A stretch of 64,000 bases of DNA from Flavisolibacter ginsengisoli DSM 18119. GTDB taxonomy: Bacteria; Bacteroidota; Bacteroidia; Chitinophagales; Chitinophagaceae. Below are positions 50,389-64,000 of the stretch, in pieces (the first letter of the stretch is position 1; the number at the start of each line of letters is the position of its first letter). The stretch is from the NCBI RefSeq assembly GCF_900129295.1, contig NZ_FQUU01000001.1:415535-479534 (forward strand). The letters are read 5' to 3'. The position numbers and the translations under genes were made by a program. The notes below the pieces were generated by a model. That model had not been told where the DNA came from, did no database searches, and saw only the letters and a list, made by a program, of their open reading frames with translations.

Positions 50389-50403
50389 TAAATAGCAGCC
50401 AAT

Positions 50404-50436
50404 AAAAAACCATCACTTATAAGGTGATGGTTTTTT
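50404..50436. terminator. bidirectional terminator between the histone-like gene and rpsG
   Basis: AACCATCAC and GTGATGGTT form a 9-bp stem flanked by A-runs and T-runs, so it works for the plus-strand histone-like gene and for rpsG on the minus strand. Confidence 0.85.
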
Positions 50437-50456
50437 TATTTTAAAAGCTTAGTTGA

Positions 50457-50924
50457 TTATACTTTGAAGTGTGCAAAAGCCTTGTTGGCTTCAGCCATAC
50501 GATGGGTATCTTCTTTCTTTTTGAAAGCAGCACCTTCACCTTTTGCAGCAGCTACGATCTCATTGGCTAATTTATCTGCCATGCTACGACCGTTTCTTTC
50601 CCGGCTGTAACGGATAAGCCATTTCATGCTTAAAGAGATCTTCCTGTCGGCACGAACCTCGGAAGGTATCTGGAAGGTTGCACCACCAATACGGCGGCTA
50701 CGTACTTCAACTGCAGGTGTAACATTGGATAGAGCTCTTTTCCAGATCTCATAACCTTCTTCACCTGTTTGCTTGCCTACTTTATCTATGGCATCATAGA
50801 AAATATCATAAGCCACGCTTTTTTTACCCTGCCACATAATGTTGTTAACAAAACGGGTAACCAGTTTATCATTAAAACGTGGATCTGGAGCTAATGGGAG
50901 TTTTTTGGCTTGTGCTTTACGCAT
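50457..50924 (-). CDS. rpsG: 30S ribosomal protein S7
   Basis: S7 starts assembly of the 30S head. The protein has [45 protein letters not shown] and [44 protein letters not shown]. The length is 155 residues. It follows rpsL after 86 bases and ends at a terminator. Confidence 0.98.
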
Positions 50925-51010
50925 GAATTTTAATTTTTAAGAAGCCACAGTAGCAGAATGTCTTCAAGTATTAAAACTTTACTCTGTGCTGCGCTTATTT
51001 ATACAAATAA

Positions 51011-51409
51011 TTACTTTTTAGCTGCTGGCTTTGCACCGGCTTTCTCTTTCTTCGTACCATATTTGGAACGGCTCTGCTTACGGTCTTTAACACCAGCAGT
51101 GTCCAATGATCCACGAACAATATGGTAACGTACACCTGGCAGATCTTTTACACGACCACCACGGATCAATACGATTGAGTGCTCCTGTAAATTGTGACCT
51201 TCACCTGGAATATAAGCGATCACCTCAACTTTATTGGTCAAACGAACCTTTGCAACTTTACGAAGCGCAGAGTTAGGTTTTTTAGGGGTAGTGGTATACA
51301 CACGGGTGCAAACACCACGACGCTGCGGACAGCTGTCTAAAGCCCTTGACTTGCTTTTTGCACGAATGATCTCTCTTCCTTTACGAACTAATTGCTGAAT
51401 AGTAGGCAT
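51011..51409 (-). CDS. rpsL: 30S ribosomal protein S12
   Basis: S12 controls decoding accuracy. It has [33 protein letters not shown] and [25 protein letters not shown]. The lysine in TPKKPN, where streptomycin-resistance changes arise in other species, is the common wild-type residue. The length is 132 residues. Confidence 0.98.
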
Positions 51410-51433
51410 TACGAACCTTTAAATTTTGGACGG

Positions 51434-51465
51434 CAAAGGTAAAGAGCTGAGGGTGAATAACCAAA
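51434..51465 (-). promoter_or_regulatory. promoter of rpsL-rpsG
   Basis: On the minus strand TTTG (51465-51462), 20 bases, then TACCTTTG (51441-51434). The boxes and spacing are identical to those of the rpsJ promoter. The rpsL ATG is 25 bases downstream. Confidence 0.75.
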
Positions 51466-51505
51466 ATTTGAAAATTTAAATTCCAAAAAACTTTCCTAAA
51501 AAGCA

Positions 51506-51531
51506 ATAAAGCCACATAACTGTGGCTTTAT
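51506..51531 (-). terminator. intrinsic terminator of ilvE
   Basis: ATAAAGCCACA and TGTGGCTTTAT form a perfect 11-bp stem around TAAC, 32 bases past the ilvE stop. The T-run on the minus strand is weak. Confidence 0.75.
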
Positions 51532-51562
51532 ATTATAAAATATTGATAATCACTTAATATTC

Positions 51563-52627
51563 TTACGCTTTCACCATCCAGCCATATTTATCTTCCCTTC
51601 TGCCTTCACGAATATCTGTAAGCCATTTTTTCACCGTGGGAGCTGTTTTCCATTTATCAGTGTCAAAATGCATCACAAAATCTTTATACCTGAGTTCTTT
51701 AATGTAAGTAATTGTAGCTGCCGTTCCTGTTCCAAACACCTCGTATAAAATGCCCGCCTTATAAGCTTCAATGATCTCATCAATACTAAGATCTCTTTCT
51801 TCAATAGTGAAACCAGCTTCTTTTAATAAGGTAAGTGCACTGTCTCTCGTCACTCCCGCCAAAATAGTTCCTGAACCCAGGTCTGGCGTAATTGCCTTAT
51901 TCCCAATAATAAATATCACATTCATGGTGCCTATTTCCTGCACATACTTATGTTCGAAAGCATCTGTCCACAACACCTGGTCATACCCTTTTTTCTTAGC
52001 CTGGGCAGTAGCATACATAGATGATCCATAATTGCCTGCTGCCTTTGCATAGCCTACACCACCGGGAACCGCACGAACATATTGTTCTTCTACATAAATA
52101 CGGATAGGAGCATTATAATAAGGGCCGCTGGGGCTCAAAATAATAATAAACTTATATTTTTCAGAAGGACGTACGCCGATCATCTCATCAGATGAAAACA
52201 TGAATGGCCTTATATATAAGGAATGATCTTCCATATCAGGAATCCATTTACTATCCAATTCCACTAGCTGCTTCATGCCATCCATGAATAATTCTTCAGG
52301 AACCTGCGGCATTTGCATCCTTTCTGCTGAAACATTGAACCTGCGGAAATTATCCTGGGGTCTGAAAATATAGGCTTCCCCATCAGCTCCCTTATAAGCT
52401 TTGATGCCCTCAAATATTGCCTGTCCATAATGTAAGGCTGCCAATGAAGGACTTAAAAGCAGTGGCTGGTAAGGTTTTATCTCAATATTTTTCCATTCAC
52501 CATTTTCATAATCAGCTTCCAGCATGTGGTCACTGAAATACTTTCCAAACGGAATGTTTTCAAGGTTAAGGTCCTGAAGCTTGCTTCTTTCAACCTTTGT
52601 AGTAGCAATATCCATAGTAGCAATCAT
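51563..52627 (-). CDS. ilvE: branched-chain amino acid aminotransferase
   Basis: This PLP enzyme does the last step of valine, leucine and isoleucine synthesis. It is a class IV aminotransferase with LHYGQAIFEGIKAYKG, RPQDNFRRFNVSAERM, the PLP lysine in AFEHKYVQEIGTMNV and GSGTILAGVTRDSALTLLKEAG, plus the late FGTGTAATIT phosphate-binding loop. At 354 residues it is of the longer BCAT type. The start may be the ATG four codons later. Confidence 0.96.
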   Translation of the reverse strand: MIATMDIATTKVERSKLQDLNLENIPFGKYFSDHMLEADYENGEWKNIEIKPYQPLLLSPSLAALHYGQAIFEGIKAYKGADGEAYIFRPQDNFRRFNVSAERMQMPQVPEELFMDGMKQLVELDSKWIPDMEDHSLYIRPFMFSSDEMIGVRPSEKYKFIIILSPSGPYYNAPIRIYVEEQYVRAVPGGVGYAKAAGNYGSSMYATAQAKKKGYDQVLWTDAFEHKYVQEIGTMNVIFIIGNKAITPDLGSGTILAGVTRDSALTLLKEAGFTIEERDLSIDEIIEAYKAGILYEVFGTGTAATITYIKELRYKDFVMHFDTDKWKTAPTVKKWLTDIREGRREDKYGWMVKA

Positions 52628-52692
52628 AATAAATTAATTTAGCGCAGCAAAGAAACAAAAAAAGGGTACATTAAAACCTGATTAAAGTTATC

Positions 52693-53184
52693 ATGAGCCT
52701 GAATCATATAAAATTAAATACGCGTTTATTAACAGATCTGTATCCCGACGTGCTTATACAATCTACTAGTACAACCACTGTGCCTGATTACCAACCCATT
52801 AAATATTTAGGTAAAAACGCAAAACATATTGCCCTGTTAATTAACAACCCTTCCCTACCCTATCTGCCTGACAATGAATTAAGCTTTTTAACAAGTATTC
52901 TTTCCGCCTGCAAGCTTAGTCTTGCTGATGTGGCCATTGTAAACCTACACTCTATCCCGATAAACAGGATGGAAGAAAACCTGCAATCATTGGATGCCAA
53001 TATTGTAATTCTATTTGGAATGGATCCCTTATCCATTGACCTTCCTATCAATTTCCCCCAATTCCAGCTCCAGGGTTTCAATGGTAAAACCTATTTATTT
53101 AGTCCTACTTTGCAGGAACTTGAAATGGATAAAGCATTGAAATTGAAATTATGGAACTGCTTAAAAACCCTTTTTGGTATCTAA
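52693..53184 (+). CDS. conserved-looking protein of unknown function upstream of rdgB
   Basis: I do not recognise the family. The 163 residues have no signal or membrane segment. Alternating strands and helices (HIALLINNPSLPYL, ADVAIVNLHSIP, NIVILFGMDPLSID) suggest a Rossmann-like fold, and the end MDKALKLKLWNCLKTLFGI is an amphipathic helix. It starts the plus-strand operon with rdgB nine bases downstream. Confidence 0.7.
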   Translation: MSLNHIKLNTRLLTDLYPDVLIQSTSTTTVPDYQPIKYLGKNAKHIALLINNPSLPYLPDNELSFLTSILSACKLSLADVAIVNLHSIPINRMEENLQSLDANIVILFGMDPLSIDLPINFPQFQLQGFNGKTYLFSPTLQELEMDKALKLKLWNCLKTLFGI

Positions 53185-53193
53185 CCCCTAAGA

Positions 53194-53787
53194 ATGAGAT
53201 TGATTTTTGCCACCAACAATACGCATAAAACTGACGAGATCAGGGCACTGTTACCAAAGGAGTTTTCAATAGTAACCTTAAAAGAAGCCGGCATTGAAGG
53301 TGATATACCTGAACCTCATGATACACTACAGGACAACGCTGCTGAAAAAGCAAGAACCATATATGCAATAACACATAACAATTGCTTTAGTGATGATACT
53401 GGCCTTGAAGTATATGCACTCAATAACGAGCCCGGGGTGCACAGTGCCAGGTATGCAGGAGAAGAAAGGTCCTTTGAGCAAAACATTGATAAGCTTCTTC
53501 AAAAAATGGAAAATATTCAGGACCGCTCCGCAAGGTTCAGGGCCGTCATCTGTCTTATTCTTAATGGAGAAGAACATTTTTTTGAAGGAATATGCGAAGG
53601 ATCTATCCTCACAGAAAGAAAAGGTGTAGAAGGCTTTGGCTATGACCCTGTATTCATGCCTGTTGGCGCCGATAAGAGTTTTGCAGAAATGAGTATGGAA
53701 GAAAAAAATACCTACAGCCACCGGGGCAAAGCTGTAGCTGCATTGGTAGCATTTTTGAAACAGTTAAGTTTAAAATATAATAATTGA
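53194..53787 (+). CDS. rdgB: XTP/dITP diphosphatase (RdgB/HAM1 family)
   Basis: The enzyme removes non-canonical purine triphosphates such as dITP and XTP from the nucleotide pool. The family motifs are LIFATNNTHKTDEIRALL at the start, CFSDDTGLEVYALNNEPGVHSARYAG and EGFGYDPVFMP, and SHRGKA near the end. The length of 197 residues is normal. Its stop overlaps the TTG start of the sigma factor gene. Confidence 0.96.
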   Translation: MRLIFATNNTHKTDEIRALLPKEFSIVTLKEAGIEGDIPEPHDTLQDNAAEKARTIYAITHNNCFSDDTGLEVYALNNEPGVHSARYAGEERSFEQNIDKLLQKMENIQDRSARFRAVICLILNGEEHFFEGICEGSILTERKGVEGFGYDPVFMPVGADKSFAEMSMEEKNTYSHRGKAVAALVAFLKQLSLKYNN

Positions 53788-54353
53788 GCGAAGGAAGCAA
53801 CCATACCATAAGTGAAAGCGACTTAATTGAGGGATGCCTCAGAGGAGATAGAAAGATGCAACAGGCGTTGTACCAGCGTTTCGCTTCAAAAATGTATGGC
53901 GTTTGTTTACGTTATGCAGGAAGTGCTGAAGAAGCTGAAGATGTTTTGCAGGAAGGATTTATCAAGGTATTCAATAAAATTGGAAGTTTCCGTGGAGATG
54001 GTTCTTTTGAAGGATGGATACGCAGGATATTTGTAAATACGGCCATTGAATACTACCGGAAGAAGATCTACCTGCAACCCATAACTGAATATGAAGAAGA
54101 TACACTGGAAGGAAAATATCTCTCTGTATTGGATAAGCTGGAGGAAAAAGATATCATTCAGTTGGTTCAGCAGTTATCTCCTGGCTACCGTACAGTTTTC
54201 AATATGTATGTGATAGAAGGTTATTCACATAAACAAATAGCAGAGGCGTTAGGGATAAGCGAGGGTACCAGCAAATCGCAACTATCCAGGGCTAAACAAA
54301 TTTTGCAGGACATGGTGAAGCAATTTATAGAAAGAAGAAAAAGAGTTCAATGA
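53784..54353 (+). CDS. ECF RNA polymerase sigma factor
   Basis: This sigma-70 family protein has region 2 (about 24-92: ALYQRFASKMYGVCLRYAGSAEEAEDVLQEGFIKVF) and region 4 (about 125-178: LSPGYRTVFNMYVIEGYSHKQIAEALGISEGTSKSQLSRAK). No ATG precedes region 2; TTG 53784 fits the frame and the overlap with rdgB. It is translationally coupled to the next gene by ATGA, so that product is a likely regulator. Its target genes are unknown. Confidence 0.93.
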   Translation: MSEGSNHTISESDLIEGCLRGDRKMQQALYQRFASKMYGVCLRYAGSAEEAEDVLQEGFIKVFNKIGSFRGDGSFEGWIRRIFVNTAIEYYRKKIYLQPITEYEEDTLEGKYLSVLDKLEEKDIIQLVQQLSPGYRTVFNMYVIEGYSHKQIAEALGISEGTSKSQLSRAKQILQDMVKQFIERRKRVQ

Positions 54354-55144
54354 TCATGAGTACAGAGCTTCAAAAGAAATTATCAGAATATGCTCCTGAA
54401 CCACCGGCTAACACCTGGGATGCCATCGCCAAAGCTTTGGATGAAACGCCTGCAGTTACAGGCTTTGCCAATTCCCTTTACCAATACGAGGAAACTCCCC
54501 CCATGGGCACCTGGTCAAAGATCAGTATGGTTTTGGATACAACGGCAGGGGCTAAAGTAGTTCCCTTTTCAAGAAAAAAAAGAATAGTACAATATGTAGC
54601 TGCTGCTGTCATCCTGCTTGCATTTGTATTAGGAGCAGGGCTTATGATAGGCAACAGGACCACCACTCCTTCTATTACAGGTTCAAATGCATCCATAAAG
54701 CCTTCGGCTGATACTGAAACCAAAAATGCAGGCCCGCATAATGATGTGGCAGTTTCAACCGGACAAATTCCCAATTCTTCATTTGAACGCGAAGTTGCAG
54801 TTGTAAGTAACCATAAAGAAAACAGGTCAATTATCAGCAGGATCAGGCCCAGTACGCGATTGGGGAATGTTCTTTTAGCGTCGAATTTTATTCCTAAGAC
54901 AGCAGAACGCAAACAAACTGTACCTAATTACCCGGCTTCAGAAAAATACATGGTCTACAGCGATAATGATGGCAATGCCATGAAATTACCTAAGAAGTTG
55001 TTTGACTTTATCACCTGTGTAAGAGAAGACCTGCTTTGCAAGGAACAAATGCAGCAACTGCAGGAAAAACTGGCAGCTACATCTTTAAATACCGACTTTA
55101 CCGGGGTGTTGGAAATATTGAATAACCTTAAGGAAAACCAGTAA
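54350..55144 (+). CDS. single-pass membrane protein, likely anti-sigma factor
   Basis: The start overlaps the sigma factor stop. One membrane helix lies at about residues 80-100. The cytoplasmic N-terminus carries the same short motif twice, PPANTWDAIAKALDE (18-32) and PPMGTWSKISMVLD (50-63). The other side has an unstructured stretch and then a compact C-terminus (YMVYSDNDGNAMKLPKKLFDF, then CKEQMQQLQEKL). No classic anti-sigma zinc motif is present. The role is inferred from coupling and topology. Confidence 0.7.
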   Translation: MIMSTELQKKLSEYAPEPPANTWDAIAKALDETPAVTGFANSLYQYEETPPMGTWSKISMVLDTTAGAKVVPFSRKKRIVQYVAAAVILLAFVLGAGLMIGNRTTTPSITGSNASIKPSADTETKNAGPHNDVAVSTGQIPNSSFEREVAVVSNHKENRSIISRIRPSTRLGNVLLASNFIPKTAERKQTVPNYPASEKYMVYSDNDGNAMKLPKKLFDFITCVREDLLCKEQMQQLQEKLAATSLNTDFTGVLEILNNLKENQ

Positions 55145-55153
55145 TTTGCCTTT

Positions 55154-55579
55154 ATGGCCCGGATCCGCATCTCAATTCCTGAAAGCTTTTCCTTTTCTAC
55201 AATTATTCCCATCCGCATTACGGATCTCAATTATGGTGGTCATGTGGGCAATGATTCTATTTTAAGCCTTCTGCATGAAGCACGGGTTCAGTTTCTTAAG
55301 CATTATGGACTTACCGAATTGGATTTTGCAGGAACAAGCCTTATTATGAGTGATGTAGGTATTGAATTTAAATCGGAAGTATTTTATGGAAGTTCAATAA
55401 AGGTCATGGTTACTGCGGGTGAATTCACCAGGGCAGGATTTGATATCTTTTATCAAATGATGAATGCTGAAAACAATAAACTGGTAGCTGTGGCAAAAAC
55501 AGGAATGGTTTGTTTTGACTATACCACCAGGAAAGTAACGGCTGTTCCCTCACAGGCACTTGCAAAGCTCCGGCCCTAG
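55154..55579 (+). CDS. acyl-CoA thioesterase, 4HBT/YbgC type
   Basis: A hotdog-fold thioesterase. The motif RITDLNYGGHVGNDSILSLLHEARVQFLKHYG has the Asp-Asn-Gly-His pattern of 4-hydroxybenzoyl-CoA thioesterases, and SDVGIEFKSEVFYGSSIKV follows. The length is 141 residues. It lies 9 bases after the preceding gene and is the last gene of the operon. Confidence 0.85.
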   Translation: MARIRISIPESFSFSTIIPIRITDLNYGGHVGNDSILSLLHEARVQFLKHYGLTELDFAGTSLIMSDVGIEFKSEVFYGSSIKVMVTAGEFTRAGFDIFYQMMNAENNKLVAVAKTGMVCFDYTTRKVTAVPSQALAKLRP

Positions 55580-55684
55580 CACAAATATTTCTTCACATTT
55601 ATGCATGAAATCAAATCGTTCAAACGATTTCATTATTTATATACTGAAACTCTCAAAGATGAAATAAGTGTATGCAATGAAACG

Positions 55685-55718
55685 AACAGTGCGCCTTACT
55701 GGAACCTGGCGCACTGTT
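55685..55718 (-). terminator. hairpin downstream of the beta-barrel-like gene
   Basis: AACAGTGCGCC and GGCGCACTGTT form a perfect 11-bp stem around a 12-base loop. The T-run on the minus strand is poor. It lies between two convergent genes. Confidence 0.65.
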
Positions 55719-55745
55719 ATTATTGCAATGAATAAATAGATTGGA

Positions 55746-56288
55746 TTAATATGAAATTTGTCCGTCGAATGTTTGTCTGCCGGTAAGCGTGGCGGGATCA
55801 TTTACCACTTTTGCGGAAAAAGTACCGCTGATCATCTCAAACCTTCCCGTGCCACCAGTTATAACATGATCTACATCACCCGTAATGGTGCCATCAGGGT
55901 TTTCCACAAAAGAACCTGTATAGGTCGTAGTAAATGTATCGCCATTTGCGGCTGTATATGTAGCTTCACCCTGAACCATTATTGGATCAACAGAAAAGTC
56001 TATGCTCACATCGGCAACCACTGTTGTCCTTCCCAGGTGAGTAGTTACTCCTGAACCTGTCAAATGTGCCGTCTGGTAAGGAAGTTCACCAGATTGCACG
56101 TATGATGTAAACATAGTGCCTTTAAAAGGAACCATTTTTTGGTGTGCATCAACAGTAGTTTCAGTAAGCGAATTTGTTCTGGGAATAAAGCTGATCAGGA
56201 TAAGGACACATAATAGAATAAGAAATGAAAACATCTTGTTTTTCATTGCTCCCAGGCTGCTCTTTCTTTCTTTTGGTTGTTGGTACAT
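55746..56288 (-). CDS. exported beta-rich protein of unknown function
   Basis: A hydrophobic segment at residues 18-36 (MFSFLILLCVLILISF) is a signal or anchor. The true start may be the ATG at residue 15 (MKNKM). The rest is Thr/Gly-rich beta sequence, with VTTHLGRTTVVADVSIDF, NGDTFTTTYTGSFVENPDGTITG and VITGGTGRFEMISGTF. The GGTGRF..A/S-GTF ending is seen in small lipocalin- or AOC-barrel-like exported proteins. I cannot assign a function. Confidence 0.7.
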   Translation of the reverse strand: MYQQPKERKSSLGAMKNKMFSFLILLCVLILISFIPRTNSLTETTVDAHQKMVPFKGTMFTSYVQSGELPYQTAHLTGSGVTTHLGRTTVVADVSIDFSVDPIMVQGEATYTAANGDTFTTTYTGSFVENPDGTITGDVDHVITGGTGRFEMISGTFSAKVVNDPATLTGRQTFDGQISY

Positions 56289-56928
56289 ATAAATTGATTT
56301 ATGGTTAAGGAATCGATTGTATATTGTTTTACTAAGAGTCTTGCCCTACCACCAGTGACATCGGCAGGGTTGATCTATTATGTTGATACGCTTTACAACT
56401 TCCGTACTGTGGCCCTGCAATCGCAAATACAAACGGGCATACATGCTTATGATTAGTTATTCTTTAGGGTGCCGGGCTGGCAATTCCTGTTTTCAAATTA
56501 ATAAGGGGCAAATGAAACCTATTGTTCCCGAGGCGGATAAAACAATTACGTTATAATCTATGCTATGGTCAATTAAGTTCAACCTGAAGTTGATCTTAAA
56601 AAGCAAATCAAAGTTTGATAATACAATAATAGGAGGCGCTAATGACAGTCATTTAATTCTATGACAGTAGTCAGTAGCTATCATTTGTTGCATGTATTTT
56701 GCTTATCAGCTAGTTTACTAAAAGGCAACGTGATGAGGCTTTATGCAGTACAGGTATTTATTGAACTTTTCTAAATGTGGCCTGACGGCTCATGTTCAAT
56801 GGAATATCTTAGCAGCTAAAATAGCTGTTTGGGTATAAGAATAAATTCAGCACCATACAGAATTGAAACGAACACTTTCGCCCAAAACTGATATTTGCTA
56901 TAAGAAATAATGGTTTTCCATTGCTTGC
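56289..56928. other. non-coding stretch with a degenerate element copy
   Basis: This is most of a 772-base gap. I see no supported gene. At about 56724-56800 the words CAACGTGATGAGGCTTTATGCAG recur, close to TAACGAACAGGGCTTTATGCAG of the element at 63677, so a decayed copy is likely. This may be the far end of the array to the right. Confidence 0.4.
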
Positions 56929-57058
56929 GCCTAACGATTTACGGCATGCTGAAGGACGCCTGGTTTAAAGATACTAGCGGCGGCGAAACTAAATATCATT
57001 TGATTAAATATCCCCTGCCGCCAGCAAGATATGCTTTCGGCTAGCGGGTGTAACGCAC
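56929..57058. repeat. attC-like element E0 after the amidohydrolase gene
   Basis: It starts GCCTAACG (56929) and ends GTGTAACGCAC, three bases before the stop codon of the gene at 57061. A GC-rich stem lies inside (CTAGCGGCGGC, 56974-56984, facing GCCGCCAGCAAG, 57017-57028). The TTAAAGATA core seen in E1, E2 and E7 occurs as TTTAAAGATAC. The outer ends do not pair as well as in the other copies. Confidence 0.4.
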
Positions 57059-57060
57059 AG

Positions 57061-57975
57061 TTATTTTTGTAGCTTTAAAAACTTTGAAGCATTATTATAC
57101 AAAATACCTTCCTTATCCTTCTTGCTAAGAAAGGTTAAGCTATTTAAAAACTTAATTGATTTTTCTATGGCATAAGGCCATACCATTTGGTCTGACCCGA
57201 ACATCACTCTGTTTAAATAACCCGCATGTTTTGCATTCTTTAAAAATTCTGTTACGGTACGTTGCGTGTTTGGCTCAACCCAAAGCATCACGGCCACATC
57301 GGTATACAGTTGCGGGTAATAAGCCATGAGCCGCAACGCATGTTCATGCCACTCTTCTCCACCGTTATGCATCAAATAAATCCGCAGTTTAGGGTATCTA
57401 ACTAATACATCTTCTATCAGGTAGGGATCACCGAACCTGAGCCTTGCTTTCGGTGACCAGGAATACGTTCCCCCTGGGTCGCCCCCGCCGGTGTGTACTG
57501 CCACTGGAACATCATACCTCTCACATATACGTAAATAGGGCTGCCACGCAGAGTCGCTGAGTGTGCCACCACTATAGTAAGGTGCGATTTCTCCAAAGAC
57601 TTCAATTTTTTTGTCCCTTATCATTTGCTCAAGCTTCACGCTGTCCATACCATAATCTGTTGGAGCAAACATCAAAATTCCTCTGATAATCCGACGGCTG
57701 CTGTCTTTGGCAACCCAATTCTCTACGCTCTCCGGACTACCGATCACTACAGCTTTCAAGATGTTACATTTCTTAAATGCTGCGAAAGTCGCGGAGCGAT
57801 GAGACTCTGCATTCCCTGAACCTTTGATGCCATAATAATCACTTGCTGGTTCTCTTACACCAAAGTCACTGTTAGTGTAAGAGTGAATGTGCATGTCTAT
57901 TATTCGTGTTTGGGATTGTCCAAAGGAGGTCTGAAAAATAATAAAGCAGAGTAGGGCTATTATGTAAAACTTCAT
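57061..57975 (-). CDS. exported amidohydrolase-family protein (amidohydrolase 2)
   Basis: A signal peptide ends at SFG-Q. The TIM-barrel metal site starts with DMHIHSY (His29, His31), followed by VFGEIAPYY, VAVHTGGGDPGGTYSWS, RIYLMHNGGEEW and NRVMFGSDQMVWP. This is the PF04909 type of metal-dependent hydrolase or decarboxylase; the substrate is unknown. It would act in the periplasm. It is the leftmost gene of the minus-strand series of small unrelated genes. Confidence 0.85.
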   Translation of the reverse strand: MKFYIIALLCFIIFQTSFGQSQTRIIDMHIHSYTNSDFGVREPASDYYGIKGSGNAESHRSATFAAFKKCNILKAVVIGSPESVENWVAKDSSRRIIRGILMFAPTDYGMDSVKLEQMIRDKKIEVFGEIAPYYSGGTLSDSAWQPYLRICERYDVPVAVHTGGGDPGGTYSWSPKARLRFGDPYLIEDVLVRYPKLRIYLMHNGGEEWHEHALRLMAYYPQLYTDVAVMLWVEPNTQRTVTEFLKNAKHAGYLNRVMFGSDQMVWPYAIEKSIKFLNSLTFLSKKDKEGILYNNASKFLKLQK

Positions 57976-57996
57976 GCGGTGAGGTTTATATTGTGC

Positions 57997-58126
57997 CTAA
58001 CGTTAAAGAGCTTTCTGAATCCCAAGCATTCAGAGGACATTGAGTTTCACTTCTGTTTTGCTGTATATTAAAGATATTGTGTTTAACTATTATTTTTCAC
58101 CTTTGGTTTTAGAAAGCTAATGTTAG
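57997..58126. repeat. attC-like element E1
   Basis: CTAACGTTA (57997-58005) and GCTTTCT (58010-58016) pair with AGAAAGC (58111-58117) and TAATGTTAG (58118-58126). That is 16 pairs, including one G-T wobble and a four-base bulge. In the gene sense it reads CTAACATTA to CGTTAGGC. The inside holds TTCACTTCTGTTTTG and ATTAAAGATAT, shared with E2. The stop codon of the gene at 58123 is inside it. Confidence 0.65.
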
Positions 58127-58686
58127 TGCACGTTTATCATTAGTCCATCGTTTGTCTTTACAGTATCACTTGAGATAACTTCGGAATAAATCTCCTTGTC
58201 AAATCTATATTCTTCGGCCCCTACATGAATATAAATATCTCTAAAGTTGTATTCATCTTTATATTGGTTATAGATTTCTGTTCTTAACCTTAATAACTCT
58301 TGAATGCCTGGTTTGAAAGCAGGAGAAGGTAATTCCAACGATGCGTATTTATATGTATCTTCTGTATTAATCGAGAAGTCGGCTTTGCTTAGATCAAACT
58401 GCCTGTATGCGATAATGATTCTATCGTTTAAAGCAATAGCAACACCGTGCGTGAAATCATTGCCGTCATAATCATAAGTGTACCACTTACCCAACTGCTT
58501 ACCTGATTTATAATTCATCCTTTCGGCTATCCTGCCATTTTCAAACCTTCTTATGACTGTTCCATCTACAAGTTTGTCAGTGCCCTTGTAATACGCCAAC
58601 CTATCACTACGCACCTCAATATTATTCATATCAGTAGTAGAACAGCCTACCAGAATAACAAATAATATTGAAATAAATAGTTTCAT
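58123..58686 (-). CDS. lipoprotein with MORN-like segment, unknown function
   Basis: The lipoprotein signal ends at LVG-Cys15. GTVIRRFENGRIAERMNYKSGKQLGKWYTYDYDGN (about 42-77) resembles MORN-variant repeats of toxin/antitoxin-associated proteins. The rest (to 187) is unrecognised. The stop codon TAA belongs to the terminal TAAC of the attC-like element E1. Confidence 0.6.
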   Translation of the reverse strand: MKLFISILFVILVGCSTTDMNNIEVRSDRLAYYKGTDKLVDGTVIRRFENGRIAERMNYKSGKQLGKWYTYDYDGNDFTHGVAIALNDRIIIAYRQFDLSKADFSINTEDTYKYASLELPSPAFKPGIQELLRLRTEIYNQYKDEYNFRDIYIHVGAEEYRFDKEIYSEVISSDTVKTNDGLMINVH

Positions 58687-58695
58687 TGGCTGTGC

Positions 58696-58820
58696 GCTAA
58701 AGTAGAACAGATTTCTGAAGCCAGGTTATTCAAGTTCCTGGCTCTTCACTTCTGTTTTGTTGGCAATTAAAGATATTTTGTTTAGCCTGTGTTCGTCATC
58801 CTGGGTTTTGGAAATCTAAC
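58696..58820. repeat. attC-like element E2
   Basis: AGATTTC (58709-58715) pairs with GAAATCT (58811-58817). The inside TTCACTTCTGTTTTG (58745-58759) and ATTAAAGATAT (58766-58776) are identical to E1. Compared with E1 the stem carries A-T in place of C-G at the same pair. It ends close before the lipoprotein start codon. Confidence 0.6.
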
Positions 58821-58865
58821 TATTGTTTCAATAGCCATTGTTCAACTTACGTTATCAAACTGAAA

Positions 58866-58895
58866 CCCGTGAGTCCCTTTCAGGAGACTTGCGGG
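58866..58895. repeat. dispersed hairpin repeat, copy 1
   Basis: CCCGTGAGTC and GACTTGCGGG face each other around CCTTTCAGGA. It is an imperfect inverted copy of the hairpin at 61331-61358, differing at a few positions. Confidence 0.65.
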
Positions 58896-58965
58896 GGAAG
58901 AAAAGACTTTCTTTAAACGAGTGTTAGATTTGGCAAGACTATGTTGGGCGTTCGTGCCTAGTTTC

Positions 58966-59286
58966 TCACTTATAAATTTGCCAAGTTAATGGAACACCAA
59001 AATCCATGACCATTTCCTTAAAACAATTTAAATAAATCAATATACTTTTTGGAGGATCGTATTTGAATACTACCTCAATCGAAATATTGGTCTTTGTGGC
59101 AGTAGGATATTCTTCAAAAATTTGTCCATCCTCTATAAATTGTAAGTAAGCATTAATCTTGTCCTGCAAAAGTTGAATGTGTTCTCGTTCCCTGTCCCAC
59201 ATCAAATGATCAGATATATGAAGTACAAAGTCACCAGCTTCACTTGTACTAATTATATCTATTTTGTCAAGTTGGTCAATACTCAT
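58966..59286 (-). CDS. small protein, DUF6572-like
   Basis: The N-terminus LDKIDIISTSEAGDFVLHISDHLMWDREREHIQLLQDKINAYLQFIEDGQI matches what I know of the DUF6572 family, whose members often end SGEIY then a beta strand (here ISIEVVFKYDPP). The 106 residues have no signal. The function is unknown. It belongs to the series of small minus-strand genes. Confidence 0.65.
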   Translation of the reverse strand: MSIDQLDKIDIISTSEAGDFVLHISDHLMWDREREHIQLLQDKINAYLQFIEDGQIFEEYPTATKTNISIEVVFKYDPPKSILIYLNCFKEMVMDFGVPLTWQIYK

Positions 59287-59310
59287 TGAGAACTTTTCAT
59301 TTGCATGCCA

Positions 59311-59440
59311 CTAACGTAAAGAGGCTTTCCACAGTACAGGCAGCCTGTGTTTGAATAGCTTAATAATCGGTACTAAGATAAATAGAATTGAGCAGTTGCG
59401 TCTATGCTATGTCTCCTGTATTTCGGGAAACCTGTGTTAG
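59311..59440. repeat. attC-like element E3
   Basis: CTAACG (59311-59316) pairs with TGTTAG (59435-59440), with the G-T wobble at the same place as in E1. GGCTTTCC (59323-59330) pairs with GGGAAACC (59425-59432), with a C-A mismatch after GG. The loop has TAAGATAAAT, a variant of the shared core. The stop codon of the gene at 59437 (GGC TAA CAC in the gene sense) is inside the end. Confidence 0.6.
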
Positions 59441-59661
59441 CCGTTAGAATCATTATTTCGAAAAATGACACCTAGAATGACAACTAGTACATGAACAAAA
59501 AAGAGGTTTATAGTAAGTATTGCCCCAAAGAAGCCTATACTACCAAACAGAATTTCAAACAAACTCCTGTCTCCACCTAACCAGGCAAGTAAAAGGCTAA
59601 TAGCCGTTATAACAAAAGTGTTCTTTAGTAAAAAGTATACGTATTTAGAAACTTTCTTCAT
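59437..59661 (-). CDS. small membrane protein, two helices
   Basis: This 74-residue protein has hydrophobic segments at about residues 8-27 and 36-65 and ends NNDSNG. I do not recognise it. Its stop codon lies in the end of element E3. Confidence 0.55.
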   Translation of the reverse strand: MKKVSKYVYFLLKNTFVITAISLLLAWLGGDRSLFEILFGSIGFFGAILTINLFFVHVLVVILGVIFRNNDSNG

Positions 59662-59975
59662 ACAGCCAATCTTTCAATGAATGTACTAAATATGTAGTAT
59701 ATGGTATATCAGAGCCAAAGTTATTTCTGGCCCTTCTTTAGCGGGGGAAGATTAGGGTGTTCTACTTTTTCCACTCTTCTATTTTAAAAGCAGTTATTAT
59801 ACTGCCCGGATTAAACTCAAAGTCCAGATTTTTTTGTATAGACTGGGTCTATGTTGAAAACTAATGCCGGTAATATGCACGTCAGCCACCGCTGCATTTA
59901 ATACCATGCTAGAGGTCGTAATTCTTTGGATAAGTATCCTTCATTTCCAGGAATGGGAATTGTATATCTCTGTTA
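59662..59975. other. 314-base gap between divergent genes
   Basis: This lies between the minus-strand small membrane protein and the plus-strand ASCH gene. It contains GCGGGGGAAGATTAGGGTG, similar to GCGGGGGAAGAAAAGACTT beside the hairpin at 58866. I see no supported gene and no complete element. Confidence 0.35.
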
Positions 59976-60452
59976 ATGGCAGAAAAGCAAAGGATATACA
60001 AGGCTTTAATTATGAACGATTATCCTGGCGCACCATATGCGGACTGGATAAAGAACGGGGAAAAAACTATAGAAACCAGGTTCAGAACTTTTAATTATCG
60101 TGGTGATATTGTTATCTGCTGCGGAAAAACAAACTCAGTTGGTAAAAACGCCGGCAAAGCCTTATGCATTGTTGAATTATGGAAAATAAGACCCATGAAA
60201 AAAGGAGATGAGAAAGCTGCCGGAGTAAAATTTAACCCGAAACTCAATTGTTTCCTACTTAAAAACTGGAGACATTTTAGCCGTGATTTTGAGTTCTCGC
60301 CACAAAGAATTTCAGGAGCATGGCAAAGTCTCTTTGATATATCTATACCAAACGATGTTGAGATTATTTCAAAACCCTACATAAAGGCCTTTCCAGAAAA
60401 AAGAGCAGTAACATACAATAGTTTTAGTAGCAAAGACTCCCTGCAAATCTGA
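59976..60452 (+). CDS. ASCH-domain-like protein
   Basis: IYKALIMNDYPGAPYADWIKNGEKTIETRFRTFNYRGDIVICCGKTNSV and GKALCIVELWKIRPM follow the ASCH pattern, a PUA-like fold that binds RNA or modified bases. The C-terminal 70 residues are unrecognised. It is the only gene on the plus strand in the series from 57 kb to the window end. Confidence 0.7.
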   Translation: MAEKQRIYKALIMNDYPGAPYADWIKNGEKTIETRFRTFNYRGDIVICCGKTNSVGKNAGKALCIVELWKIRPMKKGDEKAAGVKFNPKLNCFLLKNWRHFSRDFEFSPQRISGAWQSLFDISIPNDVEIISKPYIKAFPEKRAVTYNSFSSKDSLQI

Positions 60453-60466
60453 AACAATTCATGCCC

Positions 60467-60593
60467 TATAACTTTTACAGCTTTAAGAAGTAAGGGCATT
60501 CATGAACATTGCCTCACTTACTTCCAGTTGATTAATAAAGATAAATTGTTCAATACATATTAGTCAGCCCTTATTTTTTTAAGCTGCTGTTAG
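60467..60593. repeat. attC-like element E4
   Basis: TATAAC (60467) pairs with GTTAG (60589-60593). CAGCTTTAA (60478-60486) pairs with TTAAGCTG (60579-60586) with one bulge, TAAGGGC (60491-60497) with GCCCTTA (60567-60573), and TGAACA (60503-60508) with TGTTCA (60547-60552). The loop carries ATAAAGATAA, the shared core. It is downstream of both flanking convergent genes. Confidence 0.6.
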
Positions 60594-60599
60594 CTGCCG

Positions 60600-61295
60600 T
60601 TAATATTGATAAACAACTTTGCCCTGTCCAATTATGTTACCCGTCTTCGCATCAATATCTAAGTAAATGCAGCCGTCACAATCATTTTTACACTCCCAAT
60701 AAAACTTGTCGGTTGAGCAATAGAAAATTAAATCTAAACCCTGTTCTTTCATGCCATTTCCTAATGCTATTTTTCTCGCCTTGCTTTCTGTTATTGGTAA
60801 TTCCTCATCAATGAATTTTCGGAAAGCGACCAAGTTAAATCTACGATAGTCAATAACTCTTAAGTTAGCATCAAAGTCAGCTCGAAATGAAGTAATTGTG
60901 TCACCATTATAAATAAAGTCATAAAAAATCTGGTAGCCATTCGGTAACTGAAACAAAGTGTCCGATATGTGCCAAACAACGTTTTCGTATTCAAAACTTG
61001 TTGCTCTTTTACTTAAACTAAGGTACTGTTCAAATTCCTTGTCGCTAACCTTTGCCTTTATTAATTGCTTTGTCAAAACTAAGCAGCTGTCAAAGGTTGA
61101 TTGTAACTGTTTATTAGAAGTTCTAAGTTTGACAGTCTTGTCCATGGATTTTCTGTGTGTGTCGGCGGAACAACTAACTACAAAAAGTATTATCGCAAAA
61201 TAAAGAGGTAAAAATATTTTCAATGTCGATTTATAAAAGAGATGCTTTATAGGACTGTTTCCATAATGGCAGGTAGCTAAGGGGTATTTATGCAA
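60600..61295 (-). CDS. putative lipoprotein of unknown function
   Basis: A hydrophobic segment (residues 25-41) ends FVVS-Cys42, a lipobox. The ATG at 61295 lies inside the repeat element upstream, and the first 24 residues before the signal look unnatural. TTG at 61223 (LKIFLPLYF) would give a normal lipoprotein signal and is the likelier start. The mature part has FDANLRVIDYRRF, ESKARKIALGNGM and a cysteine-rich CKNDCDGCIYLDIDAKTGNIIG, which resembles a PepSY-like strand pair. The function is unknown. Confidence 0.6.
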   Translation of the reverse strand: MHKYPLATCHYGNSPIKHLFYKSTLKIFLPLYFAIILFVVSCSADTHRKSMDKTVKLRTSNKQLQSTFDSCLVLTKQLIKAKVSDKEFEQYLSLSKRATSFEYENVVWHISDTLFQLPNGYQIFYDFIYNGDTITSFRADFDANLRVIDYRRFNLVAFRKFIDEELPITESKARKIALGNGMKEQGLDLIFYCSTDKFYWECKNDCDGCIYLDIDAKTGNIIGQGKVVYQY

Positions 61296-61467
61296 TTATA
61301 CTCAAATAATATTTTTTTAATCTTCTTCCTCCGCGAGTCTCCTGCAAGGGACTCGCGGAATCATAAGTACATATTTTCCAAATCCAGCACCTCTTCATAA
61401 TGGGTTACTTCACAGAATCTGTTCTCTCGCTGGCATTTAGCAAGGTGAAGCCGTTATCTCCGTCTCG
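61272..61467. repeat. possible attC-like element E5
   Basis: In the gene sense the stretch begins TATAACGAGACGGAGATAACGGCTTC after the pseudogene stop and ends CTTAGCTACC near the next start codon. The ends only partly pair, and the middle is occupied by the dispersed hairpin at 61331-61358. I am unsure it is one element. Confidence 0.3.
61331..61358. repeat. dispersed hairpin repeat, copy 2
   Basis: CCGCGAGTC and GACTCGCGG form a perfect 9-bp stem around TCCTGCAAGG. The copy at 58866-58895 has the same layout in the opposite orientation. Confidence 0.75.
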
Positions 61468-62246
61468 TTATAAATCCTGTTTGTACAGGTTAGCAAGATT
61501 AGTTAATTTCTTTCCCAAAAGCATTTCAGCTTCAACTTTTGCTTTGTCCTTTTCCGCTTGTGAAAGCTGCTTTTCAAGTGCCTGGATAGCTTCAACGTTC
61601 TTCTGTTGTTCAAGAACCGAAAAGTCTCGCTTGCTCTCGTTATAAATTAAAAGCCACATGTAGCTTTTCGCAAAATCTTTTGAAATGTTTTGCCCGTCAC
61701 GGTACATGGTTGCAAGGTTGGCTCTTGCAGAAGTGATTTGTCCGCTTATGTTTAAATCTTCAGGTGTTTCCAATAATGCAATACGTGTCGCCCAAACCAA
61801 CATGCTGTCCAAATTCTTTTCCGTGCCGCGTCCTTCCATGTAACAGGTAACGACGTTAAACATACATTCTACGTCTTGCTGCTCTGCACATTTTGCAGAC
61901 CAGTAAAATGCTTGTTTATCGTCCTGTGTCACACCGCGACCGGTGGCGTAGCTATAAGCAATTTTAAATTGTGCGTCTTTCCAACCTTGCTTTGCAGACT
62001 TTATAAACCAGGTGTTAGCGATGCTGTCATTTTGTGGCACTTCAATACCTTGCTGATAACTTACACCATAATTGTATTGAGCTTCTGCATTTCCCTTTTA
62101 GCAGCTTGTTTAATTAATGGGATGGCATTTTTGAAGTCTTGCTTGTCAAGCAGCTCTTTTGATTTATTGTTAAGGTCTTCTGAGCTTTGTCCATATGAAA
62201 TCGTCGCAGTAAGAATAGTTAAGGCAGTCAGTATGAATTTTTGCAT
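61468..62246 (-). pseudogene. exported Sel1-repeat protein broken by a one-base frameshift
   Basis: The first part (62246 to about 62095) has a signal peptide (MQKFILTALTILTATISYGQ) and begins a Sel1/TPR-like helix hairpin ending IKQAAKR. The frame is then lost and closes at 62061. In the next frame the sequence continues naturally from GNAEAQYNYGVSYQQGI into Sel1 repeats (WKDAQFKIAYSYATGRGVTQDDKQAFYWSAKCAEQQD, CYMEGRGTEKNLDSML), ending in a coiled segment at 61468. Adding one G to the GGG at 62093-62095 (gene sense AAAAGGGAAATG) restores KRGNAEAQ. It is a pseudogene, a phase-variable tract or a sequencing error. Confidence 0.75.
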
Positions 62247-62270
62247 AGAGTTTTTTATAATGGCTTACAA

Positions 62271-62519
62271 CTAACAGGTCTTTGTGCAGGTGGGGAGTTA
62301 GTATCCCGTGTGCCAATAACCGCCGGTTCAACGTTAACCGGCTTGCCGCAGTGCTGGAATTTTATAATTGTAAGCCTGGCAACTGAAGCCGATTAAAGAA
62401 CCAAAGTAAAAAAATATTCTGTAGCTCCATAGCATTCTTTCTGACCACACCTAAGCCCATAAGCGATTTAACTGCTGATGATTTAAGAGTCTGCCAGTAT
62501 TGTAGCAAACCGCTGTTAC
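62271..62519. repeat. attC-like element E6 (long)
   Basis: CTAACAG (62271-62277) faces CTGTTAC (62513-62519). Inside, GGTCTTTGTGCAGGTGGGG is followed by a TTAGTATCC stretch that matches E8 closely over about 60 bases. The total length of about 250 bases may be two fused copies. Confidence 0.5.
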
Positions 62520-62526
62520 CGGCATG

Positions 62527-63030
62527 TCATTGTCGGCCAAGTTTTATGTATCCGAGAAAGTTGCAAATACTCAATACGATGAAGAACAAACCCGCCAATG
62601 TGAAAATTGTAAAAGCAATATAGTTGAAACTCTTTTCGCTTTCTAGAACAAACTTTGTCGGGTCTTCGGGGTCATAACGGACAAGCACTTCGCTGTCTAT
62701 TTTGTTGCTATAGGAGCGGATTTTACTCAAATCGGTGGAGGCATAAACCCAAGGTTTTGCCGTTACGGTTTCGCCGTTGAGTGGGGTAAATTCAATAATC
62801 GGTGTCTTATAGCCCTTGTTGCCATTCTGATAAGATAGAATTCTTCCAACTCCTTCGATTCCTTTGTCTTGGATTTTTTTGAGAAACAGGAAAGCACTTA
62901 TGCCTAAGAAAAAAACTAAAGAACCCACTATCAACATAGAAATAGCTGGATTAATGAACATGGAAAAGAAAAAGACAATAACGATAAGTATCCAATACTT
63001 CTGAACGTATTTCATAGAAGTCAAAAGCAA
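62527..63030 (-). CDS. DUF3592 membrane protein
   Basis: The 167-residue protein has hydrophobic segments at about 12-28, 34-50 and 140-160. The soluble part between them has GIEGVGRILSYQNGNKGYKTPIIEFTPLNGETVTAK and DSEVLVRYDPEDPTKFVLE, which is the DUF3592 layout. The function is unknown. Confidence 0.75.
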   Translation of the reverse strand: MLLTSMKYVQKYWILIVIVFFFSMFINPAISMLIVGSLVFFLGISAFLFLKKIQDKGIEGVGRILSYQNGNKGYKTPIIEFTPLNGETVTAKPWVYASTDLSKIRSYSNKIDSEVLVRYDPEDPTKFVLESEKSFNYIAFTIFTLAGLFFIVLSICNFLGYIKLGRQ

Positions 63031-63083
63031 TTGTGGTTTAGTTGTCTCGTCAGGTGTTCATAAAAACTGTGACTACTGATGCC

Positions 63084-63214
63084 GGTAACGAGAAAGGGCT
63101 TTAGGCGATATGGATATTTGAAAAAACTTCAGCCTAACTCACTTTCGTTGTTGATTAAAGATAAGGAGCTGAAAACATTTTCAAAAGCCCATATTGACTG
63201 AAACCCATGTTACC
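63084..63214. repeat. attC-like element E7
   Basis: GGTAAC (63084-63089) pairs perfectly with GTTACC (63209-63214). GGGCTT (63096-63101) pairs with AAACCC (63201-63206) with a C-A mismatch. ATATGGATATTTGAAAA (63108-63124) pairs with the segment 63178-63194 at 14 of 17 positions. TTCAGC (63128-63133) pairs with GCTGAA (63168-63173). The loop has CACTTTCGTTGTTG and ATTAAAGATA, the shared core. Confidence 0.7.
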
Positions 63215-63230
63215 TGCTGTGGTCTTTATT

Positions 63231-63596
63231 TTAGTGGCTGTCCATGATTGCAATGTCACCAGAACCTAAACCAATATATCTTTTGCCGTTGATAGAGAAG
63301 TCATATGTCTCGTAACCTGTAGAAGCAATGTAAATCTCCAGTTTGAGTCCATGGGTAAAAGTTAGTACCAGATCAAATGTATCTTTAATAACCTCAATTT
63401 TAGTCAAACGTTTACTTTCTAATTCTTTTTTGACTTCTTCAACTAAATCAAGTGGTTTTAGTAATCCAAACTGATGTCCAATATCCAGTGATACAAAAGC
63501 AATGTTATTGTTTCTAAGTAATCTCCAAAACCCTGAAGCACTCACCATAAATATTGTCACTAAAAGAAAAAACCCAACTATCAGCATTCCTATCAA
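63231..63596 (-). CDS. small membrane-anchored protein of unknown function
   Basis: A hydrophobic N-terminus (residues 3-20) is a signal or anchor. The rest, to residue 121, is mixed alpha-beta with a repeated beta pattern (LVLTFTHGLKLEIYIASTGYETYDFSINGKRYIG). I do not recognise it. It belongs to the small-gene series. Confidence 0.6.
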   Translation of the reverse strand: MIGMLIVGFFLLVTIFMVSASGFWRLLRNNNIAFVSLDIGHQFGLLKPLDLVEEVKKELESKRLTKIEVIKDTFDLVLTFTHGLKLEIYIASTGYETYDFSINGKRYIGLGSGDIAIMDSH

Positions 63597-63676
63597 AGGT
63601 TACATTTTCGAATAGTGAATTAGTGGCAAAAGTTATTTCGTTTGTCATTGTTAAATGGTCGCTTTACCATTGCAGC

Positions 63677-63863
63677 TAACGAACAGGGCTTTATGCAGGT
63701 TGGAAATTAGTATTCTGTCTGCCCATAACCGCTATTGATGGAAAATATTTTGCTGAATTTATGTACAAAAGTTGATTGTTATTCGTCTGACCGAACCAAA
63801 GCTTGGATTTTCAAATAGCTGATGTAACAATGTCCTGCCCAACTTGCATAAAACCCAATGTTA
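63677..63863. repeat. attC-like element E8
   Basis: TAACG (63677-63681) faces TGTTA (63859-63863) with the same G-T wobble as E1, E3 and E7. GGGCTTTATGCAGGTTGG (63686-63703) pairs with CCAACTTGCATAAAACCC (63839-63856) at 17 of 18 positions counting one wobble, with a C-A mismatch at the fourth. The stop codon of the gene at 63861 lies in the end. Confidence 0.7.
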
Positions 63864-64000
63864 TATACCGCTTTTCTTTCGCTTAAAGTCAACGCCAACT
63901 TTAATGTCTCGAATTTTGTTCTTAGTCACTTTGAATTGTCTGCGGAAGAAAAAGTTAGGCTTGAAATATGGTCTTAGCGTAATTAAATAGTCAGAATTTT
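63861..64000 (-). CDS. C-terminal part of a gene cut by the right edge
   Basis: The last 45 codons of a minus-strand frame end at TAA 63863-63861. The sequence is basic (RPYFKPNFFFRRQFKVTK, KVGVDFKRKKSGI). It continues the series and its stop lies in element E8. The function cannot be told. Confidence 0.5.
   Translation of the reverse strand, partial: NSDYLITLRPYFKPNFFFRRQFKVTKNKIRDIKVGVDFKRKKSGI

What the first reader, a model, noticed from the sequence alone, without database searches (positions are those of the whole stretch)
56929..63863. Integron-like gene-cassette array with attC-like elements between small genes
From about 57 kb to the window end, genes are short, unrelated and nearly all on the minus strand. 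In the gene sense most are followed by a 120-250 base imperfect hairpin that starts with a TAAC/TAACA core and ends with CGTTA/GTTAG (E1 57997-58126, E3 59311-59440, E7 63084-63214 and E8 63677-63863 are clearest; E2, E4 and E6 are weaker; E0 and E5 are doubtful). The next start codon usually follows within about 10-90 bases. This is the architecture of integron attC sites. No integrase gene is in the window. If real, it would be an array or relic in a Bacteroidota chromosome, read right to left, with any integrase expected beyond 64000.
Basis: partly seen in the sequence, partly recalled or inferred. Interest (0 to 1): 0.85.

Follow-up and report, generated by a model that had tools for sequence, protein, structure and literature searches.

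The report
Integron-like gene cassettes without IntI
The end of this window is a worn piece of a row of gene cassettes built like those of integrons, and in related bacteria such rows lie beside a different integrase that likely captures and shuffles them and that standard integron searches would miss.

Summary
Confirmed and extended. E5 holds a decayed element plus an attI-like relic; E0 fails. The window ends at its contig's end; a 260-nt exact overlap leads into contig C38, which about 4 kb further carries an attI-like site and the last 31 codons of an integrase. An intact copy (INT, 397 aa) heads a clean array on contig C34.
INT is not IntI: it lacks the IntI insertion, forms its own clade, and carries an extra N-terminal domain (weakly HARP/XPB-like in prediction). 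IntI was found in 0 of 146 family genomes, INT homologues in 70 of 195. Over 116 distinct INT loci, elements concentrate downstream (234 in 609 kb against 53 in 883 kb). Cassette starts complement the R'' box at the end of the same cassette in 129 of 153 pairs (shuffled mean 9.5, maximum 21), as recombination at G^TT predicts. An attI-like site follows INT, element arms covary, and the bottom-strand hairpin is the more stable.
Best reading: a Bacteroidota integron system on another recombinase lineage; the window holds a decayed array. Activity is untested.

The parts
63667..63873 (-). attC-like element E8 (core 63677-63863, about 187 nt)
   Evidence: R1 75.2 bits; the element alone recurs at 78-85% identity in other genera and up to 89% in the genus (flanks of three checked)
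63864..64000 (-). 3' end of a cassette gene cut by the contig end; its stop codon overlaps the R'' box of E8
   Evidence: sequence; the whole gene can be read on contig C38, 260-nt exact end overlap
63231..63645 (-). cassette gene of unknown function, frameshifted as read by eye
   Evidence: sequence and ORF list; the listed ORF 63231-63596 has no Pfam match
63076..63222 (-). attC-like element E7
   Evidence: R1 77.9 bits (in training set); bottom-strand fold z -3.8; its R' core GTTACCGGCAT is the complement of the R'' of E6
62527..63030 (-). cassette gene, DUF3592
   Evidence: Pfam PF12158 1e-5
62324..62528 (-). attC-like element E6 (the true R' core probably lies further on, near 62271)
   Evidence: R1 57.0 bits; core inferred from the homologous cassette of G153
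61468..62246 (-). cassette gene with Sel1 repeats, frameshifted here, one open frame in a relative
   Evidence: split ORFs; Pfam PF08238; 79% DNA identity to G153:C27, where the homology ends at the R'' box and the frame is open
   Evidence: 37 of 41 bases identical to the attI-like region of C38; pattern hit against 0.02 expected, but the pattern was drawn from these two sites
60600..61295 (-). cassette gene of unknown function, secreted by look of its N-terminus
   Evidence: ORF; no Pfam match over the cut-off
60459..60602 (-). attC-like element E4
   Evidence: R1 71.4 bits
59976..60452 (+). ASCH-domain gene on the opposite strand, probably an insertion rather than a cassette
   Evidence: PF04266 1e-6; homologous stretches in G154 and G016 show no element by stem scan within the fetched flanks, that in G146 has one about 1.2 kb away
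59437..59661 (-). small cassette gene (74 aa)
   Evidence: ORF; no Pfam match
59302..59449 (-). attC-like element E3
   Evidence: R1 37.7 bits
58966..59286 (-). cassette gene, DUF6572
   Evidence: PF20212 3.7e-39
58688..58828 (-). attC-like element E2, weak and degenerate
   Evidence: R1 23.7 bits, E 0.0025
58123..58686 (-). cassette gene, lipoprotein by look of its N-terminus
   Evidence: ORF; MORN_2 below cut-off
57988..58135 (-). attC-like element E1
   Evidence: R1 73.5 bits (in training set); bottom-strand fold z -3.1
57061..57975 (-). amidohydrolase gene, last gene of the array
   Evidence: PF04909 1e-25

Best explanation
The right end of the window is a partly decayed cassette array of an integron-like system whose recombinase is likely INT, a Xer-like tyrosine recombinase with an added N-terminal domain, instead of the integron integrase IntI. 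Shown: repeated attC-like elements between cassette genes; cassette ends that complement their own starts; an attI-like site beside INT; arrays that run away from INT; covarying hairpin arms; a more stable bottom-strand hairpin. Inferred: INT would bind the folded bottom strand of an element, with its HARP/XPB-like domain possibly reading the hairpin or fork in place of the IntI insertion, and would exchange strands at G^TTR with attI or another element, adding or removing one cassette at a time; genes near attI would be expressed from a promoter there. In this genome the complete platform is on contig C34. The window's array lies about 4 kb downstream of an attI-like site whose own INT is reduced to its last 31 codons (through an inferred contig join), so it is likely a relic that INT could act on only in trans, if at all.
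Confidence: 0.85

Rival explanations
1. A cluster of attC sites without integrase (CALIN) of the classical kind: cassettes gathered by a canonical IntI now lost or acting from elsewhere, with INT an unrelated neighbour.
For: R and L boxes, G^TT cores and bottom-strand bias are integron features. One genome of the same order has a canonical IntI (G178).
Against: No IntI over the cut-off in this genome, none at E<=1e-40 in 146 family genomes or among the family genomes of the phylum draw, while 130 of 191 family genomes have the elements. Model R1 finds one weak hit (E 0.003) in 100 kb around eight IntI genes and none at E<=0.01 in 20 shorter IntI loci, though only one of the eight showed canonical sites in my scan. 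The attI-like site lies beside INT.
Confidence: 0.07
2. XerC/XerD or another general recombinase moves the cassettes; INT is merely carried along at the head of the arrays.
For: The genome has XerC-like and XerD-like genes; half of the INT-negative family genomes have elements.
Against: The attI-like site and array orientation are tied to INT in loci from many genera; no element at E<=0.01 in the 3.5-kb stretches around xerC and xerD.
Confidence: 0.06
3. A plain dispersed repeat family, for example transcription terminators or REP-like hairpins, inserted between small genes.
For: Elements lie just after stop codons; some are over 80% identical between genera.
Against: Cassette-start complementarity, attI-like site, one-way orientation from INT, tandem cassette duplication with changed 3' core. 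No Rfam family matches 50000-64000.
Confidence: 0.02

Closest known systems
Integron (IntI-based chromosomal integron)
   Same: Integrase gene, adjacent attI-like site, unidirectional array of mostly single-gene cassettes, attC-like hairpins with GTT cores and a more stable bottom strand, inferred crossover at G^TT.
   Different: Integrase lacks the IntI insertion and has an N-terminal domain; it often lies on the same strand upstream of the array; core reads about GTTRNNNGYAAY rather than GTTRRRY (recalled); element lengths peak near 126 and 190 nt; R1 hardly scores near IntI genes.
CALIN elements (IntegronFinder term)
   Same: The window's array has no working integrase next to it.
   Different: Its integrase remnant and the genome's intact platform are of the INT type, not IntI.
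XerC/XerD/XerA recombinases
   Same: Fold and closest NCBIfam models (NF040815 208.7 bits against a 220 cut-off).
   Different: INT has the extra N-terminal domain, its own clade and linked cassette arrays.
HARP domain of SMARCAL1 and the N-terminal domain of archaeal XPB
   Same: Best fold matches of the predicted N-terminal domain of INT, both weak; DUF5710 at E<=0.1 in 13 of 25 members.
   Different: No sequence match to a solved structure; function in INT unknown.

Membership tests
Integron (canonical, IntI-based) | IntI integrase with the IntI-specific insertion | tested here: not met
   TIGR02249 below cut-off in the own genome, 0 of 146 family genomes at E<=1e-40; KDR-to-HxxRH spacing 58-62 in the 107 of 110 INT rows with both motifs against 100 in 18 of 18 IntI
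Integron (canonical, IntI-based) | attI recombination site next to the integrase | tested here: met
   by sequence only: first cassette start located after INT in 41 of 53 loci, 24 of 41 with >=9 of 14 consensus bases against 22 of 6785 control sites
[quoted passage not shown]
   covariation, bottom arms more stable in 140 of 177; box layout differs from the canonical one
Integron (canonical, IntI-based) | Cassette starts with the core whose complement ends the same cassette (crossover at G^TT) | tested here: met
   129 of 153 pairs, shuffled mean 9.5
Integron (canonical, IntI-based) | Array of mostly promoterless ORFs in one orientation, away from the integrase | tested here: met
   125 of 129 ORFs in sense; 164 of 168 R1 hits point away from INT; promoters not tested
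Integron (canonical, IntI-based) | Integrase-dependent excision and integration of circular cassettes | not testable with these tools
   needs a bench assay
Integron (canonical, IntI-based) | SOS control of the integrase and a cassette promoter Pc | not tested
   no LexA box or promoter analysis was made
CALIN | Two or more attC sites without an integron integrase nearby | tested here: inconclusive
   no working integrase beside the window's array, but an INT remnant and attI-like site about 4 kb beyond; IntegronFinder's attC model was not at hand
XerC/XerD/XerA | Score above the curated NCBIfam cut-off | tested here: not met
   INT of this genome is below every Xer cut-off listed
HARP domain | Sequence match to PF07443 or to a solved HARP structure | tested here: inconclusive

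The most novel reading that the evidence does not exclude
Bacteroidota carry a second, phylum-wide integron lineage that reads folded single-stranded attC hairpins with a HARP/XPB-like N-terminal domain instead of the IntI insertion: an independent solution to cassette capture, present on chromosomes and at least one plasmid, and overlooked because integron finders define the integrase by that insertion.
Probability: 0.45. Interest if true: 0.92.

Novelty: new variant of a known kind. Interest (0 to 1): 0.85.

Why it matters
IntegronFinder 2.0 reports a complete integron in Bacteroidetes proper in Salinibacter ruber M1, where only In0 had been found before (PMC9024848, passages). Here 130 of 191 genomes of one Bacteroidota family carry attC-like elements, at least 5565 database proteins match INT at E<=1e-60, and one Chryseobacterium plasmid carries an INT homologue (38% identity) with four elements. 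If INT moves cassettes, a large share of the accessory gene flow in Flavobacteriia, Chitinophagia and relatives has an unnoticed engine, and the view that the IntI insertion is needed to recombine folded attC sites becomes testable. Single cassettes match Pfam or PADLOC models of methyltransferases, a PemK-like toxin, AbiLi and MerT, among others.

Tried and rejected
Canonical IntI as driver: rejected. In one search no control genome rang; the same profile over the phylum found 105 of 395 genomes over the cut-off, so the profile works. The recombinase on C38 (L004) was considered as driver; it sits with an IS91-type transposase just after the attI-like site, and its role was not tested. All-against-all blast of the arrays for shared cassettes: the 60 rows shown mostly are the integrase genes; the useful ones are tandem cassettes in L061 and L187. 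The search with the window's array gave one clear shared cassette (G153) and shared elements. Single-sequence folding is a weak test. Rfam: no match in 50000-64000. The VIA-align rows of the full model left most of its N-terminal domain untested, hence the separate model. Solved structures with the N-terminal profile: nothing at E<=10. INT in phage records: none at E<=1e-40. Ten paper searches: no listed title or abstract start is on an integron with a non-IntI integrase; the library lacks preprints and most subscription papers, and several of the searches had more hits than were listed.

Weak points: one search counted five duplicate loci twice; one search repeats the test without them and gives the figures used. 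The element-length peaks and the motif spacing still include these duplicates. Genome draws (195; 191) are not exactly the same, so the 2x2 table is approximate. Model R1 was trained on elements next to INT plus the own genome's, so one search counts that class only, and at most 13 candidates per genome were scored. Cassettes were chosen for matching ends. The exact tandem copies in L061 lie on a 3.5-kb contig of a draft genome; an assembly error is not excluded. The tree is a quick one with long branches.
Full report
What is in the window. The contig ends at window base 64000. From about 58.0 kb to the end, short minus-strand genes alternate with hairpin-forming elements that begin with TAACA and end with CGTTA. 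Two of the seven (E1, E7) were in the training set. E5 is a decayed element next to a stretch that matches the attI-like region of contig C38 at 37 of 41 bases. E0 is not supported.

Where the platform is. The last 260 bases of the window's contig C18 equal the reverse complement of the end of contig C38 (five contig ends compared). Read outward from the window, C38 carries the rest of the cut cassette gene, one element, another cassette gene, an IS91-type insertion (tyrosine recombinase gene plus a transposase with Y2_Tnp and Zn_Tnp_IS91 domains), an attI-like site at C38:77419-77442, and before it the last 31 codons of an INT gene (61% identity, E 4e-7). That puts the attI-like site about 4 kb beyond the window. 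On C34 an intact INT (397 aa) is followed on the same strand by an attI-like site and five elements; all four of its consecutive pairs match at 5 or 6 of 6 outer positions. A third array is on C20, single elements on C46 and C52, and one cassette with an element behind an attI-like copy on C29.

What INT is. Pfam gives Phage_integrase and Phage_int_SAM_4 behind an N-terminal stretch. It stays below the NCBIfam cut-offs for IntI, XerC, XerD and XerA. The spacing from KDR to HxxRH is 58-62 in the 107 of 110 INT rows that show both motifs, 100 in 18 of 18 IntI, and 64 in the genome's XerC-like protein. A quick tree of 56 rows separates INT (42 rows, six divergent-layout ones included) from IntI (11 rows, support 100); the INT side has support 85, and the outgroup branches are long. 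The AlphaFold2 model of P0001 (99% identical to the INT of C34; mean pLDDT 89) is nearest to IntI4 and Xer structures over residues 110-395. The N-terminal domain alone (L165; pLDDT 93) has the HARP domain of SMARCAL1 as best Foldseek match (E 0.022, probability 0.98) and XPB as best structural Z (7.2); both are weak. DUF5710 matches 13 of 25 members and HARP 1 of 25 (E 0.066) at E<=0.1.

Is INT tied to the arrays? INT homologues (E<=1e-50) occur in 70 of 195 family genomes. I fetched 40 of these loci besides C34 and 80 named loci, 116 after removal of five duplicates. Elements number 234 in 609 kb downstream of INT and 53 in 883 kb upstream. With the covariance model on 75 named loci, 168 hits: 136 downstream on the strand of INT, 28 upstream on the other strand (13 loci), 4 upstream on the same strand, none downstream on the other strand (counted by me from the table). 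So arrays run away from INT in two layouts, co-oriented and divergent. Of 65 loci with at least 3 kb downstream, 48 have a downstream element by stem scan; of the other 17, nine have opposite-strand R1 hits upstream (L196, L213, L214, L216, L217, L219, L220, L222, L226) and eight have none listed; of these, L161 was not in that search, and L161 and L224 show one upstream stem-scan hit each. Presence of elements and of INT go together: 66 of 70 against 64 of 121, Fisher p 3e-10, on nearly identical draws. The 64 genomes with elements but no strong INT hit are the main unexplained part.

Recombination signature. In integrons the crossover lies between G and TT of the core (recalled), so the first bases of a cassette belong to the element at its own end once it is circular. 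Therefore R'' of element k should complement the core that ends element k-1, not its own. This holds: 129 of 153 pairs match at 5 or 6 of 6 outer positions, against 9.5 on average (maximum 21) in 1000 shuffles and 11 of 153 for the element's own R'. In L061, a 625-bp cassette is repeated; the core after the first two elements is the cassette's own start, the core after the third is another one. In the window itself the signal is partly worn: E7/E6 6 of 6, E2/E1 5, E8/E7 4, E4/E3 1 (counted by eye).

attI. From the R'' of the first element I located the start of the first cassette after INT in 41 of 53 loci tried; it lies 80-159 nt after the INT stop in 28 of them. The 14 bases before it follow the consensus GCGTATATTTATGA: 24 of 41 match at 9 or more of 14, against 22 of 6785 other GTTR sites upstream of INT. 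The consensus was read from the same 41, and 17 of them match less well. In the own genome the motif of the C34 and C38 sites occurs four times within 3 mismatches, those two included, against none for the reversed control.

Elements. Lengths peak at 126 and 190 nt. In 34 aligned elements the two arm helices are paired in 90.1% of cells, with a covariation score of 0.706 against at most 0.110 when the partner is slid. The bottom-strand arms are more stable in 140 of 177 elements, 4 equal (p 7e-17 as counted); for whole elements it is 119 of 177 against 87 of 177 after shuffling. Around eight IntI genes of the phylum the model finds one weak hit (E 0.003) in 100 kb and none at E<=0.01 in 20 shorter IntI loci; but canonical sites were seen at only one of the eight, so this control is weak.

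Cassettes. Of 132 complete cassettes with matching ends in 35 loci the median length is 822 bp; of 129 with an ORF of 60 aa or more, 125 lie in array sense. Pfam on 113 of the 125 listed ORFs matches 77 families; none of the 25 shown has more than two members. The 25 PADLOC models shown are mainly methyltransferases. The Sel1 cassette of the window has a 79% identical relative in G153, where the homology stops at the R'' box, another element follows, and the frame is open. A Chryseobacterium plasmid carries an INT homologue followed by four elements in the same orientation.

Literature. Passages read: archaeal integron paper PMC9668308 (IntegronFinder requires a profile of the IntI-specific domain, called necessary for integron recombination); PMC8138268 (insertion essential for integron function, not fully conserved in its subgroup); PMC9024848; PMC8618304. 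Other papers were seen only as search listings.

Taxonomy. Two contigs of unnamed relatives have the lengths of named ones (G157:C1, Cnuella takakiae, same genus as the window's genome; G142:C4, Hydrotalea flava), which places the window's family as Chitinophagaceae by inference.

Noticed in passing
L021 11502-13597 (C38:77501-79596): IS91-type unit (tyrosine recombinase gene followed directly by a Y2/IS91 transposase gene) right after an attI-like site and INT remnant.
   Followed up: partly
L248 1-122 (G153:C27) and L266 15738-17054: What looks like a group II intron 3' end (by memory, not tested) abuts a cassette start, and an annotated group II intron maturase lies inside the Chryseobacterium plasmid array; canonical attC sites are intron targets too (recalled).
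   Followed up: no
G022:C1 about 2.62-2.74 Mb: A family relative has many elements on one strand over some 120 kb, a possible very large array, without an INT hit at E<=1e-50.
   Followed up: no
G178:C40:3592-4530: The only genome of the same order in the phylum draw with a canonical IntI over the cut-off.
   Followed up: partly
window 61331-61358 and 58866-58896 (minus): Two related strong hairpins (CCGCGAGTCCC...GGAGACTCGCGG type) inside the decayed elements E5 and E2, possibly terminators or a small repeat.
   Followed up: no
A2 columns 20 and 129, 26 and 123, 29 and 120: Strand-asymmetric positions in the arms: T.G in 15 of 34 at 20/129 on the top strand (A.C on the bottom), and mismatches, mostly A.C by eye, at the other two on the top (T.G on the bottom); could be the mark that tells the strands apart.
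   Followed up: partly
element lengths over INT loci: Lengths are quantised, mainly 126 and 190 nt, with smaller groups near 86, 118 and 160.
   Followed up: no
window 59976-60452 (+): ASCH gene against array direction; similar stretches in G146 (93%), G154 (83%) and G016 (73%).
   Followed up: partly
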